DNA of 64,000 nucleotides from Thermodesulfomicrobium sp. WS (GTDB lineage: Bacteria > Desulfobacterota > Desulfovibrionia > Desulfovibrionales > Desulfomicrobiaceae), in NCBI RefSeq assembly GCF_027925145.1, contig NZ_AP027130.1:1426001-1490000 (forward strand), given 5' to 3'. Positions 1-18,722 of the stretch are shown one piece after another. The position numbers were made by a program, and so were the translations under genes. The notes beneath the pieces were generated by a model that did no database searches, was not told the origin of the DNA, and worked only from the letters and a program-made list of their open reading frames with translations. Numbering within the stretch: the stretch's first letter is position 1; every line of letters starts with the position of its first letter.

Positions 1-12
1 GGTGGGGTGATC

Positions 13-801: not shown

Positions 802-1357
802 TTTCGACGAATTGCGCGAGCGCATCCGCCACGGGCGCGAGCTTGGGGCTGCAAGCTTCGAGCCGATCTACTACCTGGTATTCCCGCCTGAACAGATTCT
901 CGAGGTCAAGCGGCAGACGCCGGCCTGGATCGCGAAGTTGCACCAAGAGGGCTGGGACGTTCACATCTTCTCTCTTGCTGAACACATCTGGGCGCTGCTC
1001 AAAGACGACCCGTTTTGGTCTCTTTGCGTGATGGAGGACAAGTCCGCTCCGCTGGATTGGCCGCGCACCAACAAGTCGCTGGCGGACATTCTGACGGCGG
1101 ATAACGGCCTGTTGAAGCGACTTGAGGATGCCCTGCAGCCGCTCGAAGGCCAGCAGAACGCGCTGCTGCTCGTCACCGACCTGGAGGCATTGCATCCCTT
1201 CTTACGCATTGGCGCCATCGAGAGTCGGCTGCAGGGCAAGTTTCATGTGCCCACCATCTTTCTCTATCCCGGCGTGCGAACCGGCAAGACGCGCTTGAAG
1301 TTTCTCGGCTTCTACCCAGAAGACGGCAACTACCGCTCCGTCCACGTCGGCGGGTGA
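782..1357 (+). CDS. brxB: BREX protein BrxB (DUF1788)
   Basis: Second BREX gene, 191 aa, matching the DUF1788/BrxB family in length and in its place between brxA and brxC. The start ATG lies 20 bases inside brxA. Its exact biochemical role is not settled in the literature; it is a conserved core subunit of type I BREX. No membrane segment or signal peptide is visible. The C-terminal part ends in a Phe/Tyr/Gly-rich stretch (FLGFYPEDGNYRS), consistent with the family. A 26-base gap separates it from brxC. Confidence 0.88.
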   Translation: MSSLKADFDELRERIRHGRELGAASFEPIYYLVFPPEQILEVKRQTPAWIAKLHQEGWDVHIFSLAEHIWALLKDDPFWSLCVMEDKSAPLDWPRTNKSLADILTADNGLLKRLEDALQPLEGQQNALLLVTDLEALHPFLRIGAIESRLQGKFHVPTIFLYPGVRTGKTRLKFLGFYPEDGNYRSVHVGG

Positions 1358-1383
1358 ACTAAAGAAAGAACCAGGACTGACAT

Positions 1384-4300
1384 ATGACCATCCGATCACT
1401 CTTCGATCCGAGTAAAGACATTTATCGCACCATCGAGAAGGTCATCACCTACGACGCCTCGACTGAATCTCGCCTCAAAGCGGAGATCTCTGAGTACGTG
1501 GTCACCGAGAGCATCGAGGAGCAGTTTCGCAAGCTCCTCGATCGCATGCAGCTGGCGATGGAGTCTGGCGGCGAAAACGAGATTGGCGTCTGGGTCTCGG
1601 GTTTTTACGGTTCCGGTAAGAGCTCGTTCACCAAGTACCTTGGCCTGGCGCTTGACGATCGGTGCACCATCGACGGCACGCCGTTCATCCATTATATGCA
1701 AGACCGCCTGCATAAGCCACAAACCAAGGCGCTCCTCAGCACTGTGGCGAAGCGTTTTCCGGCGGCTGTGGTCATGCTGGATCTGGCCAGTGAAATGCTC
1801 GCTGGCGCAACGATGGAGGATGTAACGACAGTTCTCTATTTCAAAGTTCTCAAGTGGGCTGGCTATTCCGACAATCTGGTGGTGGCTGATTTCGAGCGTC
1901 ACGTGGAGCGTGATGGTCGTATGGCCGAACTGGAAAAGCGTATATCCGACCAGTTTCCAGGAAAGAAATGGTCTGATGTTCATAACAGTCCGCTAAAGGT
2001 GTCTGCGCTCCTCCCAAAGATCGCCCATGAGTTTTACCCAGAGCTCTTCACCACGCCGACGGCCTTTACGGCCGAGATGAAGGGCTGGACCAAATCGCAG
2101 GATCAGCAGACTCAAGAGATAGTCGACATCGTCCGGGAAAAAAGCGGCAAGCAACATATCGTTTTTATCATCGACGAAGTGGGCCAATACGTCGCCTCGC
2201 GCGACAACCTGATCCTCAACCTCGATGGCCTGGCCAAGAACCTCAAGCGGCTGGGCAACGGCAAGGTTTGGATCATCGCTACCGCGCAGCAGACGCTGAC
2301 GGAAGACGATCCGCGCGCCGCACTGAACTCCGACAAGCTCTACAAGCTGAAAGACCGCTTCCCGATCCAGATCGACCTTGAATCGAGCGACATCAAGGAG
2401 ATCTGCTACCGGCGTCTGCTGGGTAAGTCACCAGCGGGTGAAGCCGAACTCGGCAAGCTGTTCGACGCCCACGGCCAGGCGCTGCGACATAACACCAAGC
2501 TGCAGGATGCCAAGTATTACGACGCAGATTTCAGCAAAGAGCGTTTCATCCAGCTTTACCCTTTCCTGCCGGCCCATTTCGATATCTTGCTGCACCTGTT
2601 GGGCGCGCTCGCCAAGTCCACTGGCGGCATTGGTTTGCGCTCGGCGATCAAAGTCATACAGGACATTCTCAAAGGCGAAGGCGGTTCCAAGGCCATGGCC
2701 GATCAGCCGGTTGGCTGGCTCGCCACCACGGTCACGCTGTACGACGAACTGGAAAAGGATATCCGCCGCGCTTTTCCATCCATCCACCAAGCGGTTGGCA
2801 AAGCCCAGATCCGCTTCCCCGATTCACCGCTCCATCAGGACATTGCCAAATCCATTGCTGTATTGCAGATTCTCGGCAACCTGCCGGTGACGGTGCAAAA
2901 CGTCGCCAGCCTGATGCATCCCTCCGTAACGGCACCGTCGCTACTCGACTCCGTGAAGAAAGCCGTTGAAGAGATGCTGAACGACATGCATGTGCCGCTC
3001 GGCGAAAAGGATGGCAAGCTCGTGTTCTTCAGCGAGAAGCTGCGGGATATCGAGCAGGAGCGTGGCGGCATTGCACTGCGCACCGTGGACGTCAAGCGCA
3101 TCTTCAACGATGCGCTACGCGAAGCGTTTGACCCGCTGCCCCGGGTGAGTCTGCACGGCACGATGGCTGTGGCCACTGGCTTGAAAGTTCAAGCCGGCAG
3201 CGCGATCACCAGCCTGGCGGGGGATACAAACACCATCCAGACCGTTGTGGAGCTGGTACCGGCCGGCGACTACGACACCGCCAAGAACCGGATGCTCGAT
3301 GACTCCCGCAGTCGAGCCGGACGCAATGTCATCGGGCTCCTGGCTCGCGCCAATGCCGAACTCGACGACCTCGCGGGTGAAATCTATCGCTGCCAGCGCA
3401 TCGCGGAGCTGCATCGCAATGAGCCTGACCAGGAGATCAGGGACTACTGCGCCGGCCAGTTGGACCGAGCGGCTAAGCTCGCCAACCAACTCAAGAGCAA
3501 GATCAAGCAGACCCTGCAATCCGGGTCTTTCATCTTCCGCGGGCAGGCTACGGCGGTCTCGGCGCTGGATGTCGATTTGCTGGAGGCTGCCAAGAAGCTG
3601 CTCGCGGAGGTGGCTGGCCAAGTATTCGATCGGTACGCAGAAGCGCCCGTTCGCGTGGCCACCGACACCGCCGAGAAGTTGCTGAGGGTCGCCAATCCCG
3701 CCGCCATCAGCAGTGCGCTCGACCCGCTGGGCCTGGTGCAAGCCGTGGCCGGTCGCGCCTCGTTCAAGACTGACCACAAGGCGATGATCAGCATCCGTGA
3801 CTACATCGAACGCTCCGGTGTGGTCGAAGGTAAGCGGTTGCTCGACCATTTTTCCGATGCGCCGTTCGGCTGGTCGCCCGATACCACACGCTACATCGTG
3901 GCAGTCATGCTGATGGCCGGTGAGATCAAGCTCAAGGTCTCGGGCCGTGAGGTCACAGCGGCTGGGCAACAGGCGATCGACACGCTCAAGACCAACAACG
4001 CCTTCAGGCAGATCGGCGTTGCGCTGCGAGACGAGCGGCCGTCCAACGAAATGCTCGGACGTGCGGCAGAGCGGCTCACCGAGCTGATCGGCGACATGGT
4101 GATCCCGCTGGAACAGGAAATCAGCAAAGCGGCAGCAAAACACTTCCCGCGCTTCCAGCACGACTACGGCGCTTTGGCCGAAAAGCTCAGCGGCCTTGGC
4201 CTGGCAGGGAGTGACCGCATTCGCACCTTGAACCAGGACATTGCCGACGTCCTGTTTACCGATGCCTCCGACGCTCCGCAACGCCTGGGTGCTGAAACCT

Positions 4301-5016
4301 CCGCCATATACGACAACCTCAAGTGGGCGCTGGAAGTGAAACGGGCGCTCGACAACGGGCTCGACGCCACCCTGCGCGACTTACAAGCCCATCGCCGCGA
4401 GATCGAGGCCTTGCCGGATACCGGCGTGCCCGGGGAACTGCGCCGTGAACTGGCCGATGAGCTGGCCACTCTATCCGAGCGCCTGGGCAAAGAAGACTTC
4501 TACCAGCACGCTGCCGACTTCAACTCCCTGCTGACGCATTGGCGGGGCCGGGTGCGTGAGGCGGTCATCAAGCTTTCCAGCCAGCAAAAACTGCGTTTGA
4601 AGGAAGGCATCGAGGATCTGCAGCGCCTCCCCGAGTGGGAAGAGCTCACTCAGGAGGAGCGCGGCAACGCCGCGAACCGGCTGGAGGGACTCGTGCTGGA
4701 GGCCACGCAAGATCTGGCTGGACTGAAGAAGCTGCTCGCCCGCGACTACGACATCAACAGTACGCTGGAGGAGCTCAAGCGCTCGATCCAGCGCCAGGGC
4801 CAGGAACGCCTGCGCCAGCGCATGGAGCAAGAGCGCGCCAAGTCTGGCGAGAAGGGTCCGTCCAAGCTCACCAAGAAGATTGCCGTGCCGGCCAGGATCA
4901 CCACGGCGGCCGACATCGACGCCATCATCCAGCAACTCCACGAGATCAAGGCACAGATCGGCATTTACTCAGAAATCGAGGTGACCTTTTCGGTCGGCAA
5001 GGGAGGCGAGCAGTAA
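1384..5016 (+). CDS. brxC: BREX P-loop ATPase BrxC
   Basis: Large BREX ATPase of 1210 aa, the typical length for BrxC (PglY-like). A Walker A motif GFYGSGKSS lies near residues 74-82, and a Walker-B-like segment VFIIDEVGQY near residues 259-268. The C-terminal third is rich in charged helices (around residues 960-1170), probably coiled coil. BrxC is required for BREX DNA modification and phage exclusion and is thought to act with PglX and PglZ. The start ATG follows a weak AGGA. The stop codon TAA is directly followed by the pglX start, so the two are probably co-translated. Confidence 0.92.
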   Translation: MTIRSLFDPSKDIYRTIEKVITYDASTESRLKAEISEYVVTESIEEQFRKLLDRMQLAMESGGENEIGVWVSGFYGSGKSSFTKYLGLALDDRCTIDGTPFIHYMQDRLHKPQTKALLSTVAKRFPAAVVMLDLASEMLAGATMEDVTTVLYFKVLKWAGYSDNLVVADFERHVERDGRMAELEKRISDQFPGKKWSDVHNSPLKVSALLPKIAHEFYPELFTTPTAFTAEMKGWTKSQDQQTQEIVDIVREKSGKQHIVFIIDEVGQYVASRDNLILNLDGLAKNLKRLGNGKVWIIATAQQTLTEDDPRAALNSDKLYKLKDRFPIQIDLESSDIKEICYRRLLGKSPAGEAELGKLFDAHGQALRHNTKLQDAKYYDADFSKERFIQLYPFLPAHFDILLHLLGALAKSTGGIGLRSAIKVIQDILKGEGGSKAMADQPVGWLATTVTLYDELEKDIRRAFPSIHQAVGKAQIRFPDSPLHQDIAKSIAVLQILGNLPVTVQNVASLMHPSVTAPSLLDSVKKAVEEMLNDMHVPLGEKDGKLVFFSEKLRDIEQERGGIALRTVDVKRIFNDALREAFDPLPRVSLHGTMAVATGLKVQAGSAITSLAGDTNTIQTVVELVPAGDYDTAKNRMLDDSRSRAGRNVIGLLARANAELDDLAGEIYRCQRIAELHRNEPDQEIRDYCAGQLDRAAKLANQLKSKIKQTLQSGSFIFRGQATAVSALDVDLLEAAKKLLAEVAGQVFDRYAEAPVRVATDTAEKLLRVANPAAISSALDPLGLVQAVAGRASFKTDHKAMISIRDYIERSGVVEGKRLLDHFSDAPFGWSPDTTRYIVAVMLMAGEIKLKVSGREVTAAGQQAIDTLKTNNAFRQIGVALRDERPSNEMLGRAAERLTELIGDMVIPLEQEISKAAAKHFPRFQHDYGALAEKLSGLGLAGSDRIRTLNQDIADVLFTDASDAPQRLGAETSAIYDNLKWALEVKRALDNGLDATLRDLQAHRREIEALPDTGVPGELRRELADELATLSERLGKEDFYQHAADFNSLLTHWRGRVREAVIKLSSQQKLRLKEGIEDLQRLPEWEELTQEERGNAANRLEGLVLEATQDLAGLKKLLARDYDINSTLEELKRSIQRQGQERLRQRMEQERAKSGEKGPSKLTKKIAVPARITTAADIDAIIQQLHEIKAQIGIYSEIEVTFSVGKGGEQ

Positions 5017-6924
5017 ATGCCCTTCGACCAAGCCACAAGAAACCGCCTGCAGCGCTTCGTCACCGACGCGCGCCGCGTGCTGGAAGAGGAATTCACGCGC
5101 CAGCTGCAAAACGACTTTGGGCTGGACCCGAACTCGGGCACCGTGGCGGCGCTTGCCAGCCTGGGCCACCTCAACGACGCGCAGCACGAAACTGCCCGCA
5201 TCCTGCGCGACACCCTGGCGCACTACATCGCCAGTGGCGACATGAATGCCACGCAGGGGCTGGCGCGTATCGTGCGCGAGCAGGCCTTCACCGTGCTCAA
5301 CCGCTTGGCGGCGCTGCGCATGGCCGAGGCGCGCGGCCTGCTCATGGAATCGGTGGGCGGCGGCTTGCAGTCCAAGGGCTTTCAGCTCTACGCCCGCCTG
5401 GCCGATACTGGCCTGGGCGAAACGGGGGATGCCTACCGCGTGTACCTGTTCAGCGTGTTCGATGAACTCGCCCAAGACCTGCCGGTCCTGTTCGACCGCT
5501 ACTCGCCCCAAGGCCGCCTGTTCCCGCGCGAGGCCGCGCTGCTGCACGTGCTCGACCTGATCAACGCCCCCGACATCGCCCCGCTGTGGCGCGAGGACGA
5601 GACCATCGGCTGGATCTACCAATACTTCAACTCAACCCAAGAGCGACGGGCCATGCGCGAGGCCAGCCAGGCGCCGCGCAACAGCCGGGAACTCGCGGTA
5701 CGCAACCAGTTCTTCACCCCGCGCTATGTGGTCGAGTTTCTGGTGGACAACACCTTGGGGCGTCTCTGGTTCAACGCCACCGGCGGGCAAACGGTTTTGC
5801 GCGAACGCTGCCCATACCTGCTGGTAAAGCCCGACGAAACACCGCAAGCCGCCGCCAAACTGCGCGACCCGCGCACCCTCAAGCTCTTGGACCCGGCCTG
5901 CGGCTCCATGCACTTTGGCCTGTATGCCTTCGATCTGTTGACCGAGATCTACCGCGAAGCCTGGGCCTGGGATCAACAGCACGGCCCCGGCTCGCTCGAT
6001 ACGCTCCCCTCGCCCCCAGGGAGCGGGGCTGGGGGTGAGGGCTTCAAACCCCTGTGCCACACCTACGCGGACGAAGCGGCCTTTCTGCGCGACGTGCCGC
6101 GGCTCATCATCGAGCACAACCTCTACGGTGTGGACATCGATCCGCGCGCCGCGCAGATCGCCTCCTTGGCGCTGTGGCTGCGGGCGCAACGTGCCTGGCA
6201 CGATGCCGAGGTGAAAGCCAAAGAGCGCCCGCCGATCGGGCGCGGCCATGTGGTTGCCGCCATTGCGCCGCCGGCGGAGCGTGAGCTGCGCGAGCAATTG
6301 GCCGCGCAGCTCGATCACCTGGACGCCGAGTTGTTCCAGAAAACCCTACAACTTTTGAAAAACCTTCCGGAGCTGGGCCTCTTGCTGCCGATTGAGCGCG
6401 AACTGCCGCAGCTCATCCGGCACGTTTATGGCGAGCATGGCCCGATGTTTCGGGAAGCCGACCAGGAACAGTGGCGCAAGGCCGAGGCGCGCCTGCGCGC
6501 CGCGCTGAGCGAATTCGCCCACGCGGCCTATGCCACCTACCAGGGCCGGCTCTTCGCCCAAGACGCCCTGGAGGGGCTGCGGCTCATCGACCTGGCGGGC
6601 CAAGCCTACGACGTGGTGGTGATGAATCCCCCCTTTGGCGCGCCGGCGACCGTGAGCAAAACCTACCTTGCGCAAACCTATCCGCGCAGCAAGAACGACC
6701 TCTTGGCCGTCTTCGTCGAGCGCGGCCTGCAACTGCTGCGCCCCGGTGGGCGCTTGGGGGCGATCACCTCGCGCACCGGCTTTTTTCTTTCGAGCTTTCA
6801 GAGGTGGCGCGAGCAGGTGGTGTTGGGCATGGCCACGCCCGAAGTCATGGCCGACCTGGGGCATGGCGTGATGGACGAGGCCATGGTCGAAGCCGCCGCC
6901 TATGTCTTGGAGAAACGCCGATGA
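5017..6924 (+). CDS. pglX: BREX adenine-specific DNA methyltransferase PglX, N-terminal (catalytic) half
   Basis: Catalytic half of the BREX N6-adenine methyltransferase, 635 aa; intact PglX is about 1200 aa in one chain. The SAM-binding motif DPACGSMHFG is near residue 291, the acidic loop LYGVDIDPRAAQIA near 369, and the catalytic MNPPFG near 536. PglX marks host DNA at an asymmetric site so that BREX spares it. The frame stops with TGA at 6922-6924, just after YVLEKRR, and the ATG of the next frame overlaps that stop (ATGA). The second frame carries the remaining domains, so the enzyme is either a natural two-chain protein or the victim of a one-base deletion. A REP-like palindrome (6007-6041) adds a Gly/Pro/Ser-rich insert near residues 331-342. 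A GGAGG precedes the start codon. Confidence 0.9.
   Translation: MPFDQATRNRLQRFVTDARRVLEEEFTRQLQNDFGLDPNSGTVAALASLGHLNDAQHETARILRDTLAHYIASGDMNATQGLARIVREQAFTVLNRLAALRMAEARGLLMESVGGGLQSKGFQLYARLADTGLGETGDAYRVYLFSVFDELAQDLPVLFDRYSPQGRLFPREAALLHVLDLINAPDIAPLWREDETIGWIYQYFNSTQERRAMREASQAPRNSRELAVRNQFFTPRYVVEFLVDNTLGRLWFNATGGQTVLRERCPYLLVKPDETPQAAAKLRDPRTLKLLDPACGSMHFGLYAFDLLTEIYREAWAWDQQHGPGSLDTLPSPPGSGAGGEGFKPLCHTYADEAAFLRDVPRLIIEHNLYGVDIDPRAAQIASLALWLRAQRAWHDAEVKAKERPPIGRGHVVAAIAPPAERELREQLAAQLDHLDAELFQKTLQLLKNLPELGLLLPIERELPQLIRHVYGEHGPMFREADQEQWRKAEARLRAALSEFAHAAYATYQGRLFAQDALEGLRLIDLAGQAYDVVVMNPPFGAPATVSKTYLAQTYPRSKNDLLAVFVERGLQLLRPGGRLGAITSRTGFFLSSFQRWREQVVLGMATPEVMADLGHGVMDEAMVEAAAYVLEKRR
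6007..6041. repeat. REP-like palindrome inserted in frame in pglX
   Basis: An imperfect inverted repeat with 13-base arms (6007-6019 and 6029-6041, one mismatch) and a 9-base loop. The C-rich/G-rich form is typical of short repeats scattered in Beta- and Gammaproteobacteria. Here it is read through as a Pro/Gly/Ser-rich insert between the SAM-binding motif and the acidic loop of PglX, without breaking the frame. It is not seen elsewhere in this window, which suggests that the BREX genes came from a genome where this repeat is common (inference). Confidence 0.65.
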
Positions 6925-8825
6925 GCCTGTTTTTGCGCTTGCTTGCCGAAGACGACAAAGCCGCCGCGCTGCACACCCTCTGCGCCCGGCTGCGCCAGGG
7001 GGAAAACGACCCGCGCCTCTTTACCGTCGCGCCCGCGGCGTTCGACACCGTGCCGGGCAAGCCCTTTGCCTATTGGGTCTCGGACGCGGTGCGGCAGACC
7101 TTCCAGCGCCTGCCGCCCTTCGAGAGCGAGGGGCGGACGGTGAAACAAGGCTTGGCGACGGCCGACGACTTCCGCTTCGTCCGCGCCTGGTGGGAAGCAG
7201 ACCGCAGCGCAACACCAGGCCAGTGGTTCCCCTTTGCCAAGGGCGGCGCCTACTCGCCGTTTTATGCCGATGTCTATCTGGTGGTGAATTGGGCGCAGGA
7301 GGGGGCGGAGATCAAAAACAACCTTAATGAAAGAGGTGGCGTCCGTTCGAATGTGTGGATGCTCCGGGATACGGCCTTACATTATTTCTTCCGCCCCGGG
7401 CTGACCTATACCAGTTACACGAATCTGGGATTTGGGCCACGCGTGATGCCCGTCGGTTGCATTTTCTCTGTCGCAGGGATGGGAATCCACGGCGTTACTC
7501 TTGCAGACCTCGCATTGCTAAGCTCTACTGGTTTTCAGTCGATGCTTTATCTGACTGCAGACCATAGAAAATGGGAAGCAGGGGTCATTCAGCGCACACC
7601 AATCCCCCATTCCGATAATGAGGAACAAACAAAAGGTTTGACACAACTCGCCCGCCGCGCCTGGTCATTGAAGCGCACGCTGGATACCGTCGAAGAGACC
7701 TCCCACGCCTTTCTCCTCCCCGCAGCGCTGCGCGGTCGGCTCGGCGATTTCGACCCGCCCGCGATCGAGGCCGAGCTCTCGCGCATCCAGGCCGAAATCG
7801 ACGCCATCGCCTTCGACCTCTACGGCTTTTCCGAGGCCGACCGCGCCGCGGTGCAGGCAAACCTGGGCACCGCCAGTGACACTGCGCCCGATTGCAACGA
7901 AGCCGAAGCCGAGGAAGACGACGATGCCGCCGCCCCCGTCGATGACCGCCAGGGGCTGCTCTCCTGGGCGGTGGGGGTGGCCTTTGGCCGCTTCGACTGG
8001 CGCTTGGCCACTGGCGAGCGCGCCGCCCCGCCAGAGCCGGAGCCGTTCGATCCGCTGCCAGCGCAAAGCCCCGGCATGTTGCCCGAGGGCGCCGAACCCT
8101 TCCATGCCCACCCCGGCATTCTCGTGGATGATCCGGGCCATCCGCATGATCTCGCGCGGCTGGTGGAAGAGGTGTTGCTGCGCGTGGCAGCCCCCGTTCC
8201 CGACGATGTGCGCCGCTGGCTGCAAAGGGATTTTTTCCCCTTCCACCTCAAGCGCTATTCCAAGAGCCGCCGCAAAGCGCCCATCTACTGGCCGCTCGCC
8301 ACCCCCTCGGGCCGCTACACGCTGTGGGTCTATTACCCCAGCCTCACCAGCCAGACGCTCTACACCGCCATCAACGACTTCGTCGAACCCAAGCTCAAGC
8401 AAGTAGGCAGCGACGTGACGGCACTGCGCAACAAGGGCGCCAAACGTAGCCGCGAGGACGAAAGACAGTTCGAAGCCCTGCAAGCCTTCGAGCAGGAGCT
8501 GATCGAGCTGCGCGACACTTTGCGCACGCTCGCGCCCCGCTACCGGCCCCACCACGACGACGGCGTGCAGATTTCTGCCTCGCCGCTGTGGCCGCTCTTT
8601 CGCCACCGGCCGTGGCAAAGGGTGTTGAAGGAAACGTGGGAGAAACTGAAAGAGGGCCACTACGACTGGGCCAAGCTCGCCATGCACTACTGGCCCGAGC
8701 GCGTGCGCGAGAAATGCAAAACCGACAAGAGCCTCGCCATTGCGCATGGTCTGGAGGATTTATACGTCGAGCCCGAGGCAGCGTCGAGGAGGACGCGCGG
8801 CAAGACGAAGGGAGAGCCATTGTGA
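6921..8825 (+). CDS. pglX: BREX methyltransferase PglX, C-terminal half (separate frame)
   Basis: Second half of PglX, 634 aa, starting at the ATG at 6921 that overlaps the stop of the first half. It begins [17 protein letters not shown], which in single-chain PglX proteins follows the methyltransferase domain almost directly, so little or nothing is missing at the junction. It should hold the target-recognition and C-terminal helical regions; an acidic linker ([14 protein letters not shown]) lies near residues 330-345. A GGAG at 6909-6912, 8 bases before the ATG, can serve as ribosome binding site, supporting coupled translation of two chains. One added base near 6920 would fuse the two frames, so a frameshift mutation or sequencing error is the alternative. 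Confidence 0.85.
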
Positions 8826-10069
8826 TGATTGAATCAAACAAACCCGATCAGAGGGGCGGTATCCCACGCATCGAATCTGTGCGAGTGGAAAACTATCGCG
8901 CCCTGCGCAAAGTCGAATTGGACAACCTTACGCCGATGACGGTGTTGCTGGGGCCCAATGGCAGCGGCAAATCTACGATCTTCGATGTGTTCAATTTTTT
9001 GTCTGAATGCTTCCAGTTTGGCTTGCGTCATGCTTGGGATCGACGCGGGCGTGGCAAGGAACTGAAAACGCGCGGCGCGGATGGCCCCATCGTTTTCGAG
9101 CTGAAATATCGTGAGCAACCCAAGAGCCCCATCATCACCTACCACCTGGCGATCGATGAGGGCCCCAAAGGGCCTGAGGTGGTCGAGGAATGGCTGCAAT
9201 GGCGGCGTGGTCAGAAAGGCCAGCCGTTCCGTTTCCTGGAGTTTCGTCGCGGGGTCGGTCGAGCCGTCAGTGGTGAGTTGCCGGATATCCAAGATCAGCG
9301 CAAGGAGACGACGCTGCGCTCGCCGGATTTGATCGCGGTGAATACGCTGGGACAGTTGGCGGAACATCCCCGCGTGGCCGCGCTGCGCGAGTTCATTACC
9401 GATTGGTATGTGTCTTACCTGTCCATTGATCAGACACGCAATCAGCCGGAAGCGGGTCCGCAAGAGCGGCTGAGCAAGAACGGGGAGAACTTACCCAACG
9501 TCATCCAGTATCTGAAAGAGCAGCACCCGGAACGTTTGGAGAAGATTTTTGCCGTTCTGCGCCAGCGCATTCCGCGCCTGGAACGGGTGGAGGCCGAGCC
9601 CATGCCAGATGGCCGCCTGCTGTTGCAAATCAAGGATGCCCCTTTCGAGCAGCCAGTGCTGTCCAAATTCGCATCCGATGGCACCCTGAAGATGCTGGCT
9701 TACCTGACCGTGCTTTACGATCCCAACCCGCCGCGCTTCATCGGTATCGAGGAGCCGGAGAATTTCTTGCACCCGCGTTTGCTGCCCGAACTGGCCGAAG
9801 AGTGCCGGGCAGCGACTGAGCGCTCACAGTTGTTGATCACCAGCCACTCCCCCTTTCTGCTCAACGCCATGCGTGCCGAAGAGGTGTGGGTGCTCTATCG
9901 AGACGAACAAGGCTTTACTCGGGCAGTGAGAACCTCTGGTATTCAGGGCATACGCGAGTTCATGCAGGCTGGCGCCAGCTTGGGTTACCTCTGGATGGAG
10001 GGGCATTTTGGCTTGGGCGATCCCTTGGTGAATCAGGGCGCGCCTCGTTCTGAAAAGGGGCGAGGCTGA
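8825..10069 (+). CDS. AAA (OLD/ABC-like) ATPase, BREX-embedded accessory gene
   Basis: ATPase of 414 aa in the AAA_21/AAA_15 group (RecF/SMC-like). Walker [15 protein letters not shown] is near residues 39-52, Walker [14 protein letters not shown] near residues 305-317, and an H-loop TSHSPF near residues 339-344. It is not a core BREX gene: it lies between pglX and pglZ and forms a pair with the following DUF4276 gene, sharing one base (TGATG). ATPase plus TOPRIM-like pairs are known as phage-sensing toxin modules (OLD, PARIS and similar). I infer an accessory or back-up defence module triggered by phage proteins, not a step of BREX itself. The start is the ATG overlapping the pglX stop; a GTG three bases upstream is also possible. 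Confidence 0.85.
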
Positions 10070-10683
10070 TGCTGGAAAAGCTGATCGTGTTTGTCGAGGA
10101 ATACTCGATGGAAACGGCGTTGGAGCAACTGCTGCCCAAATTGCTCGGGGAGATCGAATTTCAGATTGTCCGCTTTCAGTGCAAGAACGACCTGCTCCAG
10201 CACGCACCTGATCGCCTCAAAGCTTATGCCGCCTGGTTGCCTGATACGTGGCGCATTCTGGTGCTGGTAGATAGAGATGACGATGATTGCGCAGATCTGA
10301 AGGCGCGGCTGGAGCAGATGGCTGCAGCAGCAGGCTTATTGACCAAGACGAAAGCCGGGCAGGGTCAGCGCTTCCAGGTCGTCAATCGCATTGCCATCGA
10401 GGAGCTTGAAGCCTGGTTTTTTGGTGACTGGACAGCCGTGCAGGCCGCCTACCCCCGGGTACCGGCTACCGTTCCACAGAAAGCGGGTTTTCGCGATCCC
10501 GACGCGATTGCGGGCGGCACCTGGGAAGCGCTGGAACGCATCCTCAAGAAGGCCGGCTATTTCAGTACAGGCTTACGCAAATTGGAATGCGCACGCGCTG
10601 TGGCTGCGCACATGGAACCGGCGCGAAACAGCTCGAAAAGTTTCAAGAAATTTTGCAGCGCTGTTACGGCGGCAATGGCGTGA
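10069..10683 (+). CDS. DUF4276 (TOPRIM-like) protein, partner of the ATPase
   Basis: Protein of 204 aa that I assign to DUF4276, a family with a TOPRIM-like fold. An acidic FVEEYSMETALE lies near residues 8-19, an acidic cluster VDRDDDD near 68-74, and the family-typical EELEAWFFGD near 111-120. TOPRIM proteins cut or nick nucleic acid using such acidic residues. Together with the upstream ATPase it probably forms a two-gene effector: sensor or regulator plus nuclease. It overlaps the ATPase by one base and ends 9 bases before pglZ, so it is transcribed with BREX. Nuclease activity is inference; the family call rests on motifs only. Confidence 0.75.
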   Translation: MLEKLIVFVEEYSMETALEQLLPKLLGEIEFQIVRFQCKNDLLQHAPDRLKAYAAWLPDTWRILVLVDRDDDDCADLKARLEQMAAAAGLLTKTKAGQGQRFQVVNRIAIEELEAWFFGDWTAVQAAYPRVPATVPQKAGFRDPDAIAGGTWEALERILKKAGYFSTGLRKLECARAVAAHMEPARNSSKSFKKFCSAVTAAMA

Positions 10684-10692
10684 GGTAAATGA

Positions 10693-13230
10693 ATGACGAT
10701 TGCCGAATTCATTCGAGAAAGCGTGCTGCGGCCGCGCCTGAAGCAAGCGGGCGCCCTGGTGGTGTACGACGCTGACAGGCGCTACCGTGAGCTGTGTCTT
10801 GATCTGGCCTCCGACACGGTGCGGGTGGTGGATGCCTCGATCAGCAGCATCGAAAGCCGTGAGGCAGCACTGCTGGCGCTGCGTGAGATGGGGCAGCCCC
10901 AGGCCCCGCTGGGAGGGGTGCTGATCTACGTGCCTGCCAAGCGCCCGGAAACCGACGAGCAGAAGCAAGTCGATCCATTCGCCCTGTACGCCGTATGTGG
11001 CGCAGTGTTCCCGCAAGACGATGGCGACGAGTACTTGAGCCTGTGTCTGCGTGCCAAGCCGGATCATGCGACCGAGATTCGGCGGTTGTTTGCCGACAAT
11101 CCCCAGGGGCCGACCTTTGCCGTGATCGATGCGATTGGCGGCGGTGTGAGCTGGCCGCAGCTGCGCGCCACGTTGCGGGTGGAGTCCGCGCGCGAGATTT
11201 TGACCGCACTGCTCGCCCCGAGCACCAGCCAATCCGAGGCACTTAAAGGGCAGGAAGGCTGGGTGCAGGAGGCGCGGGATTTTCTTCGCGCTACCTTGGG
11301 CCTGAACCTGAAGACGCGCGGCAAGACCTGGTCTGCCCTGGCGGATGAACTGTGGCGCTACGTGCTGTTCAGCGAGTTCGTATTTGATCTGCCCGTGGCG
11401 CTGCCAGACACCCTGAAGGGGGTGCCGCACGCGCCGATGGAAGCCAGACCCATCGTCGAGGATGTGTGCGACCGTCTGCGTAGCGATCCGAAGTCACGCG
11501 CGGCGTACATCGAGCGCGCCGAGGCCATCGAGGCGGAACTCAACCTGCCCGATCTGTGCGCTGCAATCGAAGACCTGGGTGAGCGCGACACCTTCCCCTT
11601 CGAGGAGCGGACCTTCCTGCGCACGGCGATCAAGGGGATCGTCAGCGGGGACACCGATGCCACGCGCCGTGTGTTGACCCGCCACAAGAGTTCGGTGTGG
11701 CTTGGCAAGGGCGAAAGCCAGGCCCAATGGGAGTTGGTGCGCTCGGCCTTGCGCCTCGTCGAGGCCTGTGACGATTTTGAGCGCCAGTTGCCGGATCACG
11801 CCCGATCGCAAGCGGAACTGATCGACTTTTACGTGGGCAGCCTGCGTGAAGCCGATCGCTTGCAGCGCGAGTTTGAGCAAGCCGCGGGCGACTTCCTCGA
11901 CCCACATGGCTTGATGCATGAGGTGATCAATCAGGCACGGGCCCGCTACCGGCGTTTGGCGGAGAAGGTGCAAGGTGTGTTCGTGAAACACATCGAGACC
12001 GCTGGTTGGCCGCCGACCGGGCGGCTGGCCAACGTCGATGTCTTTGATCGTCTGGTGGCGGAGCGCCTCAAGGAGAGTGGGCGCAAAGTGGCCTATCTGA
12101 TGGTGGACGCCCTGCGTTACGAGTTGGGCGTGGTCCTCGAAAAACTGCTGGCAGAGGACGGTCCCGTCGAACTGCAAGCGGCCTATGCGCAGCTACCCAC
12201 CATCACCCCAGTGGGCATGGCGAGCTTGCTGCCGGACGCTCGCACGGGGCTGACCCTTTCGCTGGAGAATGATGTCCTGGTGCCTAAGCTAGCAGGGGCG
12301 CCGGTGAGCAACGTCCAACAGCGCATGAATGTGCTGGCCAAGCGCTATGGCGATCGGTTCGCGGAAATGCGGTTGGATGACTTTGTTCGCGGCAAACCAA
12401 AGATCGCAGACACCGTCGATCTGCTGGTGCTGCGCTCCACGGAAATCGACAGTCAACTCGAAAGCACCCACGAGACGACGCTCGGCCTGATCCCGGGCAC
12501 GCTCAAGCTGATCCGCGTGGCGCTGCATAAGCTGCGTGGCATGGGCTTCAAAGAGGCAATCATCGTGACCGACCATGGCTTCTTCTTGAACGCACAACCA
12601 GAGTCTGGCGATGTGTGCGTGAAACCTCAGGGGAAATGGCCGGTGAATGCCCATGACCGCATGATGCTCGGCGACGGCACAGCGGATGGTCACAGCTTGG
12701 TGGTGAGTGCCGAGAAGGTCGGCATCCGCGGTGACTTTGCTCAAGTGGCCATGCCCCGCAGCATGGCGCCGTATCGGGCAGGGCATCTTTATTTCCACGG
12801 CGGAGCATCCCTGGTCGAGGCGGTCGTGCCGGTGCTGGTGGCGCGCCTCGATACCGCCTCTCACGATGAGCAGCGAAAGGTGCTGGTCAAGCTGAGCTAC
12901 AAGAACGGCGCCAAGCGCATCACGACGCGGCTACCGGTGATCGAGGTGGCGCTGGTCTCTGAGGACATGTTCTCGCAAGACGTGAGCCTGGAGATCTTGC
13001 TGGAAGCGCAAGACAGCAAGGGCAATGTGGTCGGCGAGCCGCGCCCAGGTGGGGATGTGAACCCCGCCACACGGACGGTCACCTTGATGCCGGGCCAGCG
13101 CAAGCAGATTGCTCTGCGCATGGACGACGAGTTCCGAGGCAAGTTCTCGGTCAAGGCGCTCAACCCGACGACGCTGGCGCTGGCGTCGAAGGGCAGTGAA
13201 CTGGCGCTCGAAACCGATTACACGGAGTGA
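10693..13230 (+). CDS. pglZ: BREX alkaline-phosphatase-like protein PglZ (BrxZ)
   Basis: BREX core protein of 845 aa with a PglZ domain (alkaline phosphatase superfamily). Around residues 469-478 the segment AYLMVDALRY carries the conserved Asp expected at the metal site, and IIVTDHGFFL near residues 622-631 has the Asp-His pair of this superfamily. PglZ is the signature gene used to define BREX. The N-terminal region (residues 1-180) is the less conserved helical part, and the C-terminal region from about 720 onward has a beta-rich domain. A GAGGT just before the start serves as ribosome binding site. The stop codon is 5 bases before the brxL start. Confidence 0.93.
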   Translation: MTIAEFIRESVLRPRLKQAGALVVYDADRRYRELCLDLASDTVRVVDASISSIESREAALLALREMGQPQAPLGGVLIYVPAKRPETDEQKQVDPFALYAVCGAVFPQDDGDEYLSLCLRAKPDHATEIRRLFADNPQGPTFAVIDAIGGGVSWPQLRATLRVESAREILTALLAPSTSQSEALKGQEGWVQEARDFLRATLGLNLKTRGKTWSALADELWRYVLFSEFVFDLPVALPDTLKGVPHAPMEARPIVEDVCDRLRSDPKSRAAYIERAEAIEAELNLPDLCAAIEDLGERDTFPFEERTFLRTAIKGIVSGDTDATRRVLTRHKSSVWLGKGESQAQWELVRSALRLVEACDDFERQLPDHARSQAELIDFYVGSLREADRLQREFEQAAGDFLDPHGLMHEVINQARARYRRLAEKVQGVFVKHIETAGWPPTGRLANVDVFDRLVAERLKESGRKVAYLMVDALRYELGVVLEKLLAEDGPVELQAAYAQLPTITPVGMASLLPDARTGLTLSLENDVLVPKLAGAPVSNVQQRMNVLAKRYGDRFAEMRLDDFVRGKPKIADTVDLLVLRSTEIDSQLESTHETTLGLIPGTLKLIRVALHKLRGMGFKEAIIVTDHGFFLNAQPESGDVCVKPQGKWPVNAHDRMMLGDGTADGHSLVVSAEKVGIRGDFAQVAMPRSMAPYRAGHLYFHGGASLVEAVVPVLVARLDTASHDEQRKVLVKLSYKNGAKRITTRLPVIEVALVSEDMFSQDVSLEILLEAQDSKGNVVGEPRPGGDVNPATRTVTLMPGQRKQIALRMDDEFRGKFSVKALNPTTLALASKGSELALETDYTE

Positions 13231-13235
13231 GCCTG

Positions 13236-15332
13236 ATGGACGAACTCGACAAGAAACTGAACGAGACCTTCGACGGCAAGGTACTGCGCAAGGACCTGCT
13301 GCACCGAATCAAGAAGGGCACCAACGTCCCAACCTTCGTGCTGGAATTTTTGTTGGCCAGGTTTTGTGCTAGTAATGACGATGCAGAAATCCAGGCCGGT
13401 TTAGAGGCCGTGCTGGCAACCTTGCAGGACAACTATGTGCGGCCAGATGAGGCCAATGCTGCCCAATCCAAGGTGGCCACCAAGGGCAAGCACCGCTTCA
13501 TCGACAAGGTGCATGTGCGCTATGTCGAGAAGGAGAAACGTCATTGGGCGGCGCTCGAAAACTTCAATTCCCAGCGCATCGCCATTGGCGAAAAGTTCTA
13601 CCGCGACAACGATCGCTTGCTGGAGGGGGGCATTTGGGCGGAAGTGACTCTGGCACACAACGACATTGAAGAAGATGACTACGCGTTTTACATCGAAGAC
13701 CTGCGGCCGATCCAGCTGACACGTTTTGACTTCGACCATTATGCAGAGGGGCGTAGAGCGTTCACGCGTAATGAGTGGCTCGATGTGGTGTTACGGTCAG
13801 TGGGCCTGGAACCCGGCAAACTCACGCATCGGGTCAAGCTTCACTTCATCGCGAGGCTGGCCGCATTGGTGGAGCCCAACTACAACGTCATCGAGTTGGG
13901 CCCGCGCGGCACAGGCAAGTCTTATTTCTTCAGCGAGTTTTCTCCCTATGCCACGCTGGTTTCGGGCGGCCAGGCGACCAAGGCGACCCTTTTTTACAAT
14001 AACGCGCGGCGCAAGGTCGGTTTGGTCGGTTACTGGGATGTGGTGGCATTCGATGAGGTGGCGGGAATCAAGGTGCGGGACCCCGATACCATCCAGATCA
14101 TGAAGGATTACATGGCCAATGGCCGTTTCTCGCGCGGTGTCGAAGTGATCGCCGATGCCAGTCTGAGTTTTGTGGGCAATATCGATCTTTCCGTGCAGCA
14201 GGTGGTGAATTCCGATCAGCATGACCTGTTCCAGCCCCTTCCTCCCGAACTCGATTTGGCGGTTATGGATCGCTTCGCCGCGTATATCCCAGGTTGGGAG
14301 ATGCCCAAGAACAGCAGCGAATTCCTGACCAGCCACTACGGGTTCATCACCGATTACTTGGCCGAGGCCTTCCACTACCAGTTCAAACATACGAACCGCT
14401 ACGAAGAAGTGAGCAAGCGCATTCGACTCGGCAAATCCATCGAGGGGCGCGACGAGAAAGGAATCAAAAAGACTGTCTGCGCATTCTTGAAGATTCTGCA
14501 TCCAGATGGGCCACCGACCGACGAGGAGTTTGAAGAATATGTGGCCTATGCCACCGAGTGCCGCCGCCGCGTCAAGGAGCAGATGAACAAGCGCAAGCCG
14601 GATGACGAGTTCGCGCGCATCAACCTATCCTACTTCAAGGCTAATGGCGAAGAAGTGGTGGTTTTCTGCCCGGAATCGAAGGATGCGCCCGCGACGCAAG
14701 AGCCGACGCGTCGGCGTTTGCATCAGAAGGATGGGCAGCCTGCAGAGGTGGTTGGCGTGCAGTCGTCGGCGCAACCGGCGGCGGCTACTACGGCATCTCT
14801 GGCAGTACCGACAACGGTATCACCAGCCTCAACTTTGACTGCGGAGGGGCAGGCATCCATTGAGCAAAAAGAGCAACACTTCACCATCCTCTACGGCGAT
14901 ACCGGCTACAGCTATGAGTCGATCTTCGGCCCCTACCTACAGGGTGCGAAGTCTGTTGTGGTCGAAGATCCCTACATCCGGCTGCCACACCAGATTCAGA
15001 ACTTTGTCCGCTTCTGCGAAACCGTGCTGAGGGCGGGAACGGTGAGGAAGATCAGTTTGATCACCAGCTACGACGACAAGACCCAGTTGGCCGAAATCGC
15101 CGAGAAACTTGATGAGTTGAAGGAAAGTTTGCTGGAATGGGATGTCGAGCTGGAAGTGAAGCTGAACCCGAACATGCACGACCGAGAGATTCGCATCGAC
15201 AACGGCTGGGTGATCAAGATTGGCCGAGGGCTGGACTTCTATCAAAAACCCGGGGGTTGGTTTGAGGTAGGCGCGAACGATCTGAGCTTGCGCAAGTGCT
15301 TGGAAACGAAGGTGGATATTTTTCGCCTCTAG
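13236..15332 (+). CDS. brxL: BREX Lon-like ATPase BrxL with MIT_C-like C-terminus
   Basis: Last BREX gene, 698 aa. Residues 1-200 match the BrxL N-terminal region. The AAA core has Walker A ELGPRGTGKSYFF near residue 221 and Walker B WDVVAFDEVAG near residue 268. After an Ala/Thr-rich linker (about residues 485-545), the C-terminus is not a recognisable Lon serine/lysine protease domain. The stretch HFTILYGDTGYSYESIF followed by VVVEDPYIRLPHQIQNFVRF resembles the MIT_C phospholipase-D-like domain first known from MITD1. BrxL forms rings on DNA and is needed for phage exclusion in some type I systems. The ATG at 13236 is preferred over the GTG at 13227 because GGAG at 13224-13227 is 8 bases upstream. 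Confidence 0.88.
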   Translation: MDELDKKLNETFDGKVLRKDLLHRIKKGTNVPTFVLEFLLARFCASNDDAEIQAGLEAVLATLQDNYVRPDEANAAQSKVATKGKHRFIDKVHVRYVEKEKRHWAALENFNSQRIAIGEKFYRDNDRLLEGGIWAEVTLAHNDIEEDDYAFYIEDLRPIQLTRFDFDHYAEGRRAFTRNEWLDVVLRSVGLEPGKLTHRVKLHFIARLAALVEPNYNVIELGPRGTGKSYFFSEFSPYATLVSGGQATKATLFYNNARRKVGLVGYWDVVAFDEVAGIKVRDPDTIQIMKDYMANGRFSRGVEVIADASLSFVGNIDLSVQQVVNSDQHDLFQPLPPELDLAVMDRFAAYIPGWEMPKNSSEFLTSHYGFITDYLAEAFHYQFKHTNRYEEVSKRIRLGKSIEGRDEKGIKKTVCAFLKILHPDGPPTDEEFEEYVAYATECRRRVKEQMNKRKPDDEFARINLSYFKANGEEVVVFCPESKDAPATQEPTRRRLHQKDGQPAEVVGVQSSAQPAAATTASLAVPTTVSPASTLTAEGQASIEQKEQHFTILYGDTGYSYESIFGPYLQGAKSVVVEDPYIRLPHQIQNFVRFCETVLRAGTVRKISLITSYDDKTQLAEIAEKLDELKESLLEWDVELEVKLNPNMHDREIRIDNGWVIKIGRGLDFYQKPGGWFEVGANDLSLRKCLETKVDIFRL

Positions 15333-15356
15333 CTTGCGCATTGCGTGCCACTAGAC

Positions 15357-15383
15357 GGCCAGCCATGGTCTCCATGGCCGGCC
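15357..15383. other. Strong hairpin 25 bases after brxL
   Basis: Two 12-base arms (15357-15368 and 15372-15383) pair at 11 of 12 positions around a 3-base loop. No T-run follows, so it is a poor intrinsic terminator, though it may stabilise the end of the BREX mRNA. It lies in the 240-base stretch between brxL and the nrfA remnant, where no gene is recognised on either strand. Confidence 0.5.
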
Positions 15384-15572
15384 TCGACTTCATACCGATG
15401 TCGTTGGCCGACACAATGGGTTTGCCATTGTCACCACTGATGGTAAATGTCCGCAAGACACCGGTTTGCCCACTGCGCCAATGAGAGTGAGACACCTGCC
15501 CATTGAGAAATGAGTGTAGGGCGGGTAGGGAAAGGCATGTATATTATGTCATGGATTCAGAAGCGTGACTGA

Positions 15573-15974
15573 GGCGCAGGGATTGGCCCTAAACCGGCAG
15601 ATTACGATCAACTCCTCGTCCAGGCTCGGGAGTTGTGCCGCAAGGGGCAGTTCTTCTGGGATTATGTGTCGGCGGAAAATAGTGTTGGTTTTCACAATCC
15701 GGCCAAGGCTCTACGTACTCTGGCGCAATCCCAGCAATATAGCCAGCAGGCTGTGGAGTTAGCTATGAAGGCTGCAGACTTCACTACTGCTGAGATTCTT
15801 GCCAAAGACATCAAGACGCTTGTGCCGCCTATTTTGGAGCATAGCCGCAAACTCCAGATGGATCCGCGGCATTTGGAGAGTCATCCGTGGCTCCGCTACC
15901 TCAAACCATTGCCTCAGGCCGCCCAAGTGTGGGACGAGAACCGTCGACTTATTGCGAAACCTGCGGCGCAGTGA
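15573..15974 (+). pseudogene. nrfA: nrfA 3' remnant (cytochrome c nitrite reductase, C-terminal quarter)
   Basis: About 133 codons in frame from just after a TGA at 15570-15572 to the stop at 15972-15974. The translation contains WDYVSAENSVGFHNPAKAL and then VPPILEHSRKLQ, which fit the C-terminal helical part of Desulfovibrio-type NrfA, the pentahaem nitrite reductase that makes ammonium. All haem-binding CxxCH/CxxCK motifs, the signal peptide and the start codon are missing. The remnant keeps the native terminator downstream (15983-16017). The simplest reading is that acquisition of the BREX island, or a deletion linked to it, removed the first three quarters of nrfA. No function is expected from the remnant. 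Confidence 0.85.
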
Positions 15975-15982
15975 TGGTTTAT

Positions 15983-16017
15983 GGGGATCGCCGATGCCCG
16001 GCGGCGATCCCCTTTTT
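15983..16017 (+). terminator. Intrinsic terminator of nrfA
   Basis: Perfect 11-bp stem (15983-15993 with 16002-16012), 8-base loop and five T immediately after. It lies 8 bases past the nrfA stop and just before the end of the converging P-type ATPase gene. Confidence 0.88.
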
Positions 16018-16022
16018 GCGTC

Positions 16023-18722
16023 CTACATTGCCTTGGGGGCCCGCAGGCGTTTTTCCCATTCCACGATCAAGTACGCCGCAAGGCCGATGGCCACGGTTTT
16101 GATCCACGGCAAAACCCCTACGGGGGCAGTGGAGAAGGCATGGTGCATCAGCGGCACGTACGTGAAGGCCACTTGGAGGACGACCATGATGGACGCACCC
16201 AAGAGGACCCAGGGATTGGAGAAAAATCCCAAGGCAAAGGGCGAGCGGGAAAAGGAGCGGCTGTTGAACAGGTAAAAGGTCTCCACCAAGACAAAGGCGT
16301 TGACCGCCACGGTGCGGGCTTGGGCCTCATCACCAGTACTTGCAAGCTCCCACGCAAAAAGCCCGAAGGCCGTCACGAGCAGGATGCCTCCCACCATGAA
16401 GATACGGATGACCAGTTCCGTATCCAAGATGGGTTGGTCAGGACGGCGGGGAGGGCGCTCCATGATGCCCGGTTCTTTGGGCTCAAAGGCGAGCATGAGC
16501 CCCAGACACACCGCTGTGGTCATGTTGATCCAGAGGATCTGCACCGGCAAAATAGGGAGGGTGGTCCCCAACAGCACTGCCGCCAGGATGACCAGCCCTT
16601 CGCCGACGTTGGTGGGCAAGGTCCAGACGATGAATTTGAGCAGGTTGTCGTAGACGCCGCGGCCTTCTTCCACGGCGGCTTTGATGGTAGCGAAGTTGTC
16701 GTCGGTAAGAACCATGTCCGCGGCCTCTTTGGCTGCCTCGGTGCCCCCTTTGCCCATGGCGATGCCGATGTCCGCCTGCTTGAGGGCCGGGGCATCGTTC
16801 ACGCCGTCGCCGGTCATGGCCACCACTTCACCCTGGTGTTGCAGGGCCATGACGAGGCGCAATTTCTGCTCCGGCGCCACGCGGGCGAATACTGCCGTCT
16901 CGCTGGCGCGTTTCATGAGCTCGGCGTCGGACATGGCGGCGAGCTCGGCGCCGGAGAGCACCTGACACGTCGGCTTTCCAGGACAGGTCTCGATGCCCAG
17001 ACCCAACTGGACACCGATGGCGGCGGCCGTGACCGCGTGATCGCCGGTGATCATTTTGACACGGATTCCGGCGCGTTGGCAGGCGGCCACGGCGGCGATG
17101 GCCTCAGGCCGGGGCGGGTCCATCATGGCTTCGAGGCCGAGGAAGACGAGACCTTCGGTGAGATGGTCGTGGGTGAGCTGGGTGGTTTCCCGAGGCAGTT
17201 CTTTGAAGGCCACGGCGAGCACCCGCAGGCCATCGAGCCCCATCTCTTCGACGACGCGGCGCACGTGTTCGGCATCCAGGGGTCCGATGCCCCCATCGGC
17301 GACCATGGCCGCACTGGCCCGGGAAAGAAGCGCTTCCACCGAGCCCTTGAACAGCACCAGCCGTGACGTGCCTTCTCTTTGATCGTGGAGGGTGGCCATG
17401 TATTGGTGTTCGGACTCAAAAGGCAGGGTGTCCACGCGGGGAAAATCCCTGGCCTCGGCGGCCGGATCAAGGCCGGCCTTGAGCGCGGCCACAATCAGGG
17501 CCGCTTCCGTAGGATCTCCGGTGACGCGCTCGTCGGTTTCGGTAAAGGTGATGCGGGTGTCGTTGCACAGGAGCCCGCCGCGAGCTGTCCGCAATAGCGC
17601 CTGATTGTCGGCCTCAAATCCTTCAATGTGGCCGTGGGGGCGATACCCGGTGCCCGTGACGGAGTAGGCTCGGCCAGCAGCGAAGATGCGGGTCACCGTC
17701 ATCTGGTTTTGGGTAAGGGTGCCCGTCTTGTCCGAGCAGATGACCGTGGCTCCACCAAGGGTCTCCACAGCCGGAAGCTTCCGGATGATGGCCCCGCGAG
17801 CGGCCATACGGGAGACCCCCATGGCGAGGATGACGGTCACCGCTGCAGGCAGGCCCTCGGGAATGGCGGCCACCGCCAGGGCCACGGCGGCGAGAAAGGT
17901 GTCGGCGGCAGGTTGGCCGCGCAGGAGCCCGGCCACGAAAGTCAGCGCTGCCAACGCGATGATCGCCCACAGGAGCATGTGGCTGAAGCGGGCGATCTTG
18001 CGGGTCAGCGGCGTGGCCAACTCGTCGGCTTCGGCCACCATGGTGGAAATTCGTCCGATCTCCGTGGCGTCGCCGGTGGATACCACCACTCCCGTGGCCT
18101 GGCCATAGGTCACCAGGGTGGAGGCGTAAGCCATGTTGCGGCGATCCGCCAAAACGATATCCCGGGGAAGCGCATCCACCTGCTTGCCCACGGCCACGGA
18201 TTCGCCGGTGAGGGCGGACTCGTCCACCCGCAGGTCTTTCACTTCCACAAGGCGCAGATCCGCCGGCACCTTGTCCCCGGAGCGCAGGATGACCACGTCT
18301 CCCGGCACCAGGTCTTCGGCGGACAGCCGCACCACCTCGCCGTCGCGCCGCACCACGGCCTCGGTCACCATGGAGGTGGCAAGGGCCTCCAGGGCGCTTA
18401 TGGCCTTGGCTTCTTGAATATAGCCCACCACGGCGTTGACGAGCACCACACCCAGGATGACCGAGGCATCCACCCATTCTCCAAGGCCTATGGTCACCAC
18501 GGCGGATATGAGGAGAATATACACCAAGGGCTGATGGAATTGGAGGAGGAAACGCTCCAATTTGGTCTTGCCCTTGCGGATGGTGAGGCGGTTGGGGCCG
18601 AATTGCTCCCGGCGGCGTTCGGCCTGAAGCGGAGCGAGCCCCTTGGCAGGGTCCACTTGCAGGAGGTCAAGCACCTCCTCGACGGGCAAATGGTGCCATA
18701 TCTTGGCGAGCGAAAAATCCAT
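16023..18722 (-). CDS. P2-type cation-transporting ATPase
   Basis: Membrane pump of 899 aa, full length for a P2A-like ATPase (PacL/Ca-ATPase group). It has an N-terminal cation-ATPase domain, the phosphatase loop [11 protein letters not shown]4 [11 protein letters not shown], the phosphorylation site [12 protein letters not shown], and the hinge [16 protein letters not shown]. The aspartate of DKTGT is phosphorylated by ATP to drive cation transport across the inner membrane. In TM6 the segment [11 protein letters not shown] replaces the WVNLVTDGLP of animal Ca-ATPase, so the second calcium-binding aspartate is missing and the ion is uncertain. A clear AGGAGG precedes the start. The gene stands alone and converges on the nrfA remnant. 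Confidence 0.92.

What the first reader, a model, noticed from the sequence alone, without database searches (positions are those of the whole stretch)
15333..15974. BREX island edge truncates nrfA
Only the C-terminal quarter of a Desulfovibrio-type NrfA remains, with its own terminator, directly after the BREX operon. This gives the exact right boundary of the transferred segment and implies loss of nitrite reduction to ammonium by this gene. The 240-base junction holds a strong hairpin and no known integrase or IS.
Basis: partly seen in the sequence, partly recalled or inferred. Interest (0 to 1): 0.6.

Follow-up and report, generated by a model that had tools for sequence, protein, structure and literature searches.

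The report
IS-truncated nrfA remnant beside BREX island
Next to a bacterial anti-phage (BREX) gene cluster lies the tail end of a nitrite-reductase gene, cut off by the leftover end of a jumping gene rather than by the BREX cluster itself: an ordinary genomic scar that records how the cluster's neighbourhood was rearranged.

Summary
Window 15585-15974 encodes the last 129 residues of a Desulfomicrobiaceae-type NrfA (PF02335 positions 328-419; up to 77% identical to intact relatives) with its own terminator. No other NrfA piece and no NrfH was found in the 2.36 Mb single-contig genome.

(1) BREX does not cut nrfA: the fusion is to the first ~113 bp of an IS3-family element (15474-15586; 90% identical to a second truncated copy elsewhere in the genome, tip matching ISAzs23). 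Left of it is an IS21-type tip (15429-15468). So the junction does hold IS sequence. (2) The left island edge is also IS debris, starting ~11 bp from where homology to a sister species ends. (3) In two sister species the same mntR/P-type-ATPase interval lacks BREX, IS and nrfA. The nrfA tail therefore lies inside the genome-specific segment (about -1595 to ~16030); 15585 is not its boundary with the chromosome. (4) Both sisters also lack NrfA, so loss of nitrite reduction by this insertion is not shown.

Best reading: an IS3 copy upstream of or inside nrfA, then an illegitimate deletion from IS leader to nrfA codon ~392. Ordinary; low interest.

The parts
7..15332 (+). BREX operon: BrxA (7-801), BrxB (782-1357), BrxC (1384-5016), PglX in two ORFs (5017-6924, ~6921-8825), AAA ATPase + DUF4276 pair resembling HEC-01 (within 8588-10069, and 10069-10683), PglZ (10693-13230), BrxL (13227-15332); a BrxE-like gene lies just left of the window (genome 1425471 on)
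   Evidence: PADLOC and Pfam scans; BrxE-like protein 41% identical to the BrxE-family protein of Thioflavicoccus pTHIMO01
15333..15428 (.). spacer after brxL with a palindrome (GGCCAGCCATGGTCTCCATGGCCGGCC); not shared with the two nearest BREX relatives; origin unresolved
   Evidence: fold z -2.9; no homology downstream of brxL in L165 or L153
15429..15468 (+). terminal end of an IS21-type element (remnant, about 40 bp)
   Evidence: 92.5% over 40 bp (E 3e-6) to Hydrogenophilus pTH1, where it lies just upstream of an IstA-like N-terminus; the motif occurs only here in 297 genomes of the order
15474..15586 (+). left end (tip TGCGCCAATGAGAGTGAGACACC plus untranslated leader) of an IS3-family, ISAzs23-like element; rest of the element deleted
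   Evidence: 90% over 118 bp to genome 1665928-1666042; tip matches the left end of ISAzs23 in Azospirillum; 3 copies of the tip motif in the genome, 0 in the reversed control
15585..15974 (+). nrfA 3' remnant: last 129 codons of cytochrome c nitrite reductase NrfA, in frame to the native stop
   Evidence: retains 41 of 42 residues invariant in 19 relatives
15983..16017 (+). intrinsic terminator after nrfA (11-bp stem, T5)
   Evidence: intact relatives also carry a hairpin after nrfA, though not the same sequence
16023..18722 (-). P-type cation ATPase: conserved right flank; homology to the sister species resumes at about 16032-16042

Best explanation
The feature is a 3' remnant of nrfA left by an IS-linked deletion, inside a genome-specific, IS-littered insert that also carries a BREX operon. 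Shown: the remnant begins at a seam where the leader of an IS3-family (ISAzs23-like) element runs into nrfA codon ~392 with at most 2-3 bases of overlap; BREX is separated from nrfA by that IS end and by an IS21-type tip; the insert (about 17.6 kb, genome ~1424406 to ~1442030) is absent from the same place in two sister species and begins at an IS3 right-end tip next to mntR. Inferred: an IS3 copy sat upstream of, or within the 5' part of, nrfA; a deletion from about 113 bp inside that IS to nrfA codon ~392 removed the transposase, the heme-binding three quarters of nrfA and presumably nrfH. The tail should be catalytically dead (no heme site, no signal peptide) and has no predicted promoter. 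The conserved amino acids suggest that the cut is recent compared with the divergence of this nrfA from its relatives. Whether nrfA came in with the insert or was resident at this site is not resolved; the sister species favour, without proving, that it came in with the insert.
For: IS copy 2 at 1665928-1666042, 90% to 15469-15586, with similarity ending where nrfA homology begins at 15585. ISAzs23 left-end match. IS21-type tip. Left edge: IS3 C-terminal transposase piece and right-end tip plus an ISNCY-like N-terminal piece, with homology to sister G001 ending ~11 bp from the tip. Sister loci without BREX, IS or nrfA: G002 with mntR and ATPase about 220 bp apart, G001 with glpA/glpB-like genes. 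No other NrfA and no NrfH in the genome; no NrfA in the sisters; no BrxL in the sisters. Amino-acid constraint still visible: 41/42 invariant residues, dN 0.16-0.26 to family members with saturated or near-saturated dS.
Against: The fusion could have arisen by several routes (adjacent deletion by the IS, slippage, recombination); the sequence cannot tell them apart. The sisters are incomplete drafts (83-85%), so their lack of NrfA is not absolute, although the locus itself is contiguous in both. Third-position GC of the remnant (0.58) is below most neighbouring genes but within their range, so composition neither proves nor excludes import.
Confidence: 0.8

Rival explanations
1. One reading: BREX inserted directly into a resident nrfA, which marks the right boundary of the transferred segment and cost the cell nitrite ammonification.
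For: The nrfA tail lies right of brxL, and no 5' part was found elsewhere; nrfA is common in the family.
Against: Two IS ends lie between brxL and nrfA; nrfA is fused to the IS3 leader, not to BREX; no nrfA piece lies on the other side of BREX; sister species have no nrfA at this place.
Confidence: 0.07
2. A variant of the best explanation (not exclusive of it): nrfHA was ancestral at this locus in the genus; an IS entered it, an IS-linked deletion truncated it, BREX came in next to the IS, and the two sisters lost nrfHA completely.
For: NrfA is present in nearly all members of the neighbouring genus g4; the remnant's identity to them is similar to that of the flanking ATPase (about 67-77% against 70-73%).
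Against: Needs complete losses in G001 and G002; in no relative examined does nrfA neighbour the ATPase; in G009 and G013 it is followed by an HlyD-like and an ABC-transporter gene instead.
Confidence: 0.3
3. nrfA's tail is a functional small gene or RNA kept for another purpose.
For: Open frame of 113 codons from a TTG, conserved residues, own terminator.
Against: No predicted promoter, no heme site, no partner NrfH, found in one genome only; conservation is explained by recent truncation.
Confidence: 0.04
4. Assembly artefact joining an IS end to a fragment of nrfA.
For: The IS end has a second copy in the genome.
Against: The copies differ (90% with a 3-base indel over 118 bp); the genome is one contig of 2.36 Mb, estimated 100% complete, with no other nrfA piece to be joined.
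Confidence: 0.03

Closest known systems
IS-adjacent deletions, as in the Lenski lines (PMC11708052)
   Same: An IS end lies at the edge of a deletion that removes part of a neighbouring gene, with no target-site duplication to be seen.
   Different: Here the IS itself is truncated by the same or a later deletion: the seam is inside the IS leader, not at its tip. No ancestor is in hand.
NrfA, cytochrome c552 nitrite reductase (PF02335)
   Same: Residues of the C-terminal quarter; 41 of 42 invariant positions kept.
   Different: The heme-binding motifs and signal peptide are missing; no NrfH in the genome.
ISAzs23-like IS3-family elements
   Same: Left-end tip, near-identical over 28-39 bp.
   Different: The leader beyond the tip is not shared with ISAzs23; only a solo end is left, and no further copy of this leader other than one truncated copy was found in the genome.
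BREX of Thioflavicoccus mobilis plasmid pTHIMO01
   Same: Order BrxE-A-B-C-methyltransferase-accessory genes-PglZ-BrxL; BrxL 70% identical.
   Different: Different accessory genes between the methyltransferase and PglZ; carried on a conjugative plasmid; nothing downstream of brxL shared.

Membership tests
NrfA (cytochrome c nitrite reductase) | Sequence homology to PF02335 | tested here: met
   C-terminal positions 328-419 above the curated cut-off
NrfA (cytochrome c nitrite reductase) | Heme-binding CXXCH/CXXCK motifs and signal peptide of a working enzyme | tested here: not met
   None in 15585-15974; full-length relatives show five CXXC[HK] motifs
NrfA (cytochrome c nitrite reductase) | Partner NrfH (PF03264) in the genome | tested here: not met
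   No match in G000
IS3-family element (ISAzs23-like) | Characteristic terminal sequence | tested here: met
IS3-family element (ISAzs23-like) | Transposase gene and second terminal repeat at the junction copy | tested here: not met
   Sequence turns into nrfA at 15585; only a solo left end remains
IS21-family element | Terminal sequence upstream of istA | tested here: inconclusive
   40 bp at 92.5% to a stretch upstream of an IstA-like N-terminus in Hydrogenophilus pTH1; one supporting record only
BREX system | BrxC, PglZ, methyltransferase PglX and BrxL in one operon | tested here: met
BREX type 6 (BrxE plus a helicase, per PMC12839542) | BrxE present | tested here: met
   Weak PADLOC match E 6e-4; 41% identity to an annotated BrxE-family protein
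BREX type 6 (BrxE plus a helicase, per PMC12839542) | Helicase component | tested here: not met
   No such gene among the operon ORFs scanned from 7 to 15332

The most novel reading that the evidence does not exclude
The mntR/P-type-ATPase interval of this Desulfomicrobiaceae genus is a preferred integration site, where BREX, glp genes and nrf genes are swapped in and out through IS3-type ends, and the nrfA tail travelled with BREX as part of one IS-bounded cargo.
Probability: 0.25. Interest if true: 0.35.

Novelty: new member of a known kind. Interest (0 to 1): 0.2.

Why it matters
It corrects the reading of an island boundary: the gene remnant next to a defence island is a scar of IS activity within the variable segment, not a landing-site marker and not proof of a metabolic loss caused by the island. 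The case also shows one genomic site in three sister species with three different contents, useful for following how defence islands build up.

Tried and rejected
Integrase or tRNA att site at the edge: no tRNA in the window, no Rfam hit. Direct repeats around the junction: none in 15250-16100. The repeat of note shared by both island edges is the IS3 tip (16 of 18 bases, 15479-15496 and genome 1424409-1424426); it comes from two copies reading away from BREX, so it is not a target-site duplication and not two halves of one split element. Phage records: no match to the junction. Exact-pattern scans for the IS leader in genome contigs and for the IS21-type tip in viral contigs: none. Nrf-neighbour ABC gene of G013 in this genus: only distant paralogues at about 35%, so no hint of a second, empty nrf locus. 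Third-position GC as a test of foreign origin: not decisive. Tree of the 129-residue piece: no supported placement. Rhizobium matches to 15419-15463 (E 0.2-0.8): taken as chance.

Full report
WHAT IS THERE. The window is bases 1426001-1490000 of a single-contig 2.36 Mb genome. brxL ends at 15332. tblastn with NrfA of 20 relatives finds homology from 15585 (15582 in four) to 15974, in all but the most distant one, and the Pfam NrfA model matches positions 328-419 of 438. The remnant has 129 codons in frame to the native stop. It keeps 41 of the 42 residues that are invariant in 19 relatives, with dN 0.16-0.26 and saturated or near-saturated dS against family members: it was under protein-level selection for most of its history and was cut off recently in comparison. 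The nearest intact NrfA is 77% identical (G017). A good terminator follows. No other NrfA piece and no NrfH was found in the genome.

THE JUNCTION IS IS DEBRIS. A search of the genome with this stretch gives a second copy of 15469-15586 at 1665928-1666042, 90% identical with one 3-base indel. The second copy goes on with other sequence where the window copy turns into nrfA. The tip of both copies, GCCAATGAGAGTGAGACACC, is that of the left end of the IS3-family element ISAzs23 as annotated in Azospirillum, where the transposase gene starts about 40 bp further on. The tip motif with up to two mismatches occurs three times in the genome, never in the reversed control: at this junction, at the second copy, and at the left edge of the island. 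The 40 bp before it (15429-15468) match, at 92.5%, a Hydrogenophilus plasmid sequence just upstream of an IstA-like N-terminus; that peptide matches annotated IS21 istA. So the order is brxL - 96 bp spacer with palindrome - IS21-type tip - IS3 left end and leader - nrfA tail - terminator - ATPase.

THE SEAM. IS homology ends at ...CAGGGATTGG and nrfA homology begins with GGCCCTAAACCGGCAGATTAC (Gly-Pro-Lys-Pro-Ala-Asp-Tyr), an overlap of two or three bases at most. nrfA was therefore joined to the inside of an IS leader, most simply by an illegitimate deletion. BREX is not a party to this seam. Deletions next to IS elements are a frequent outcome of IS activity (PMC11708052, abstract).

THE LEFT EDGE AND THE EMPTY SITE. 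Left of the BrxE-like gene, outside the window, lies an ORF that joins an ISNCY-like N-terminus to an IS3 C-terminal transposase piece (rve_3), followed by an IS3 right-end tip at genome 1424406-1424426. Homology to sister species G001 ends about 11 bp before that tip. On the right, homology to the sisters resumes only at 16032-16042, within the last codons of the ATPase. In G002 mntR and the ATPase are about 220 bp apart; in G001 two glpA/glpB-like genes lie between them (named from the look of the sequence). Neither has NrfA or BrxL. The genome-specific segment is thus about 17.6 kb and includes the nrfA tail, so neither 15333 nor 15585 can be called the exact boundary between transferred DNA and the old chromosome.

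HOW IT AROSE. Shown: IS ends on both sides of BREX, nrfA fused to one of them, the same site without the insert in sisters. Inferred: an IS3 copy stood before or in nrfA and a deletion removed the IS body and nrfA's first three quarters. Not resolved: whether nrfHA was resident here or imported. Import is favoured because both sisters lack it and because no relative examined has nrfA next to the ATPase; in G009 and G013 nrfA is followed by HlyD-like and ABC-transporter genes instead. The remaining doubt is that the sisters are drafts of 83-85% completeness.

FUNCTION. The tail has no heme-binding motif and no signal peptide, and the region has no sigma-70-like promoter. It is most likely a dead remnant. 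The claim that this event cost the cell nitrite ammonification is not supported: no genome of the genus that was searched has an intact NrfA.

VERDICT. A real, correctly spotted truncated gene; the explanation shifts from 'BREX edge' to 'IS-linked deletion scar inside a variable segment'. Ordinary in kind.

Noticed in passing
window 5017-8825: PglX is encoded by two ORFs that meet near 6921 (profile positions 1-659 and 662 onwards); PADLOC has models for each half, so this may be a natural split form rather than a frameshift.
   Followed up: partly
window 8588-10683: A pair of an AAA ATPase and a DUF4276 protein resembling the candidate defence system HEC-01 sits between PglX and PglZ inside the BREX operon.
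   Followed up: partly
L022 19471-19998 (genome 1425471-1425998): A BrxE-like gene opens the operon, although BrxE is described as exclusive to type 6 BREX (PMC12839542) and no helicase gene was seen here; a similar operon sits on a conjugative plasmid of Thioflavicoccus mobilis.
   Followed up: partly
L022 18367-19404 (genome 1424367-1425404): One open frame joins an ISNCY-like N-terminus with an IS3 C-terminal transposase piece: two IS remnants fused in frame.
   Followed up: partly
L059 5929-6180 (genome 1665928-1666180): Second solo left end of the same IS3 element, upstream of a gene that looks like pyrG, without transposase.
   Followed up: partly
L037 5900-10680: In sister species G001 the same mntR-ATPase interval holds glpA/glpB-like genes instead of BREX, which suggests that the site is a repeated insertion spot.
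   Followed up: no
window 15333-15428: Strong palindrome of unknown origin directly after brxL, not shared with BREX relatives and without a T run.
   Followed up: partly
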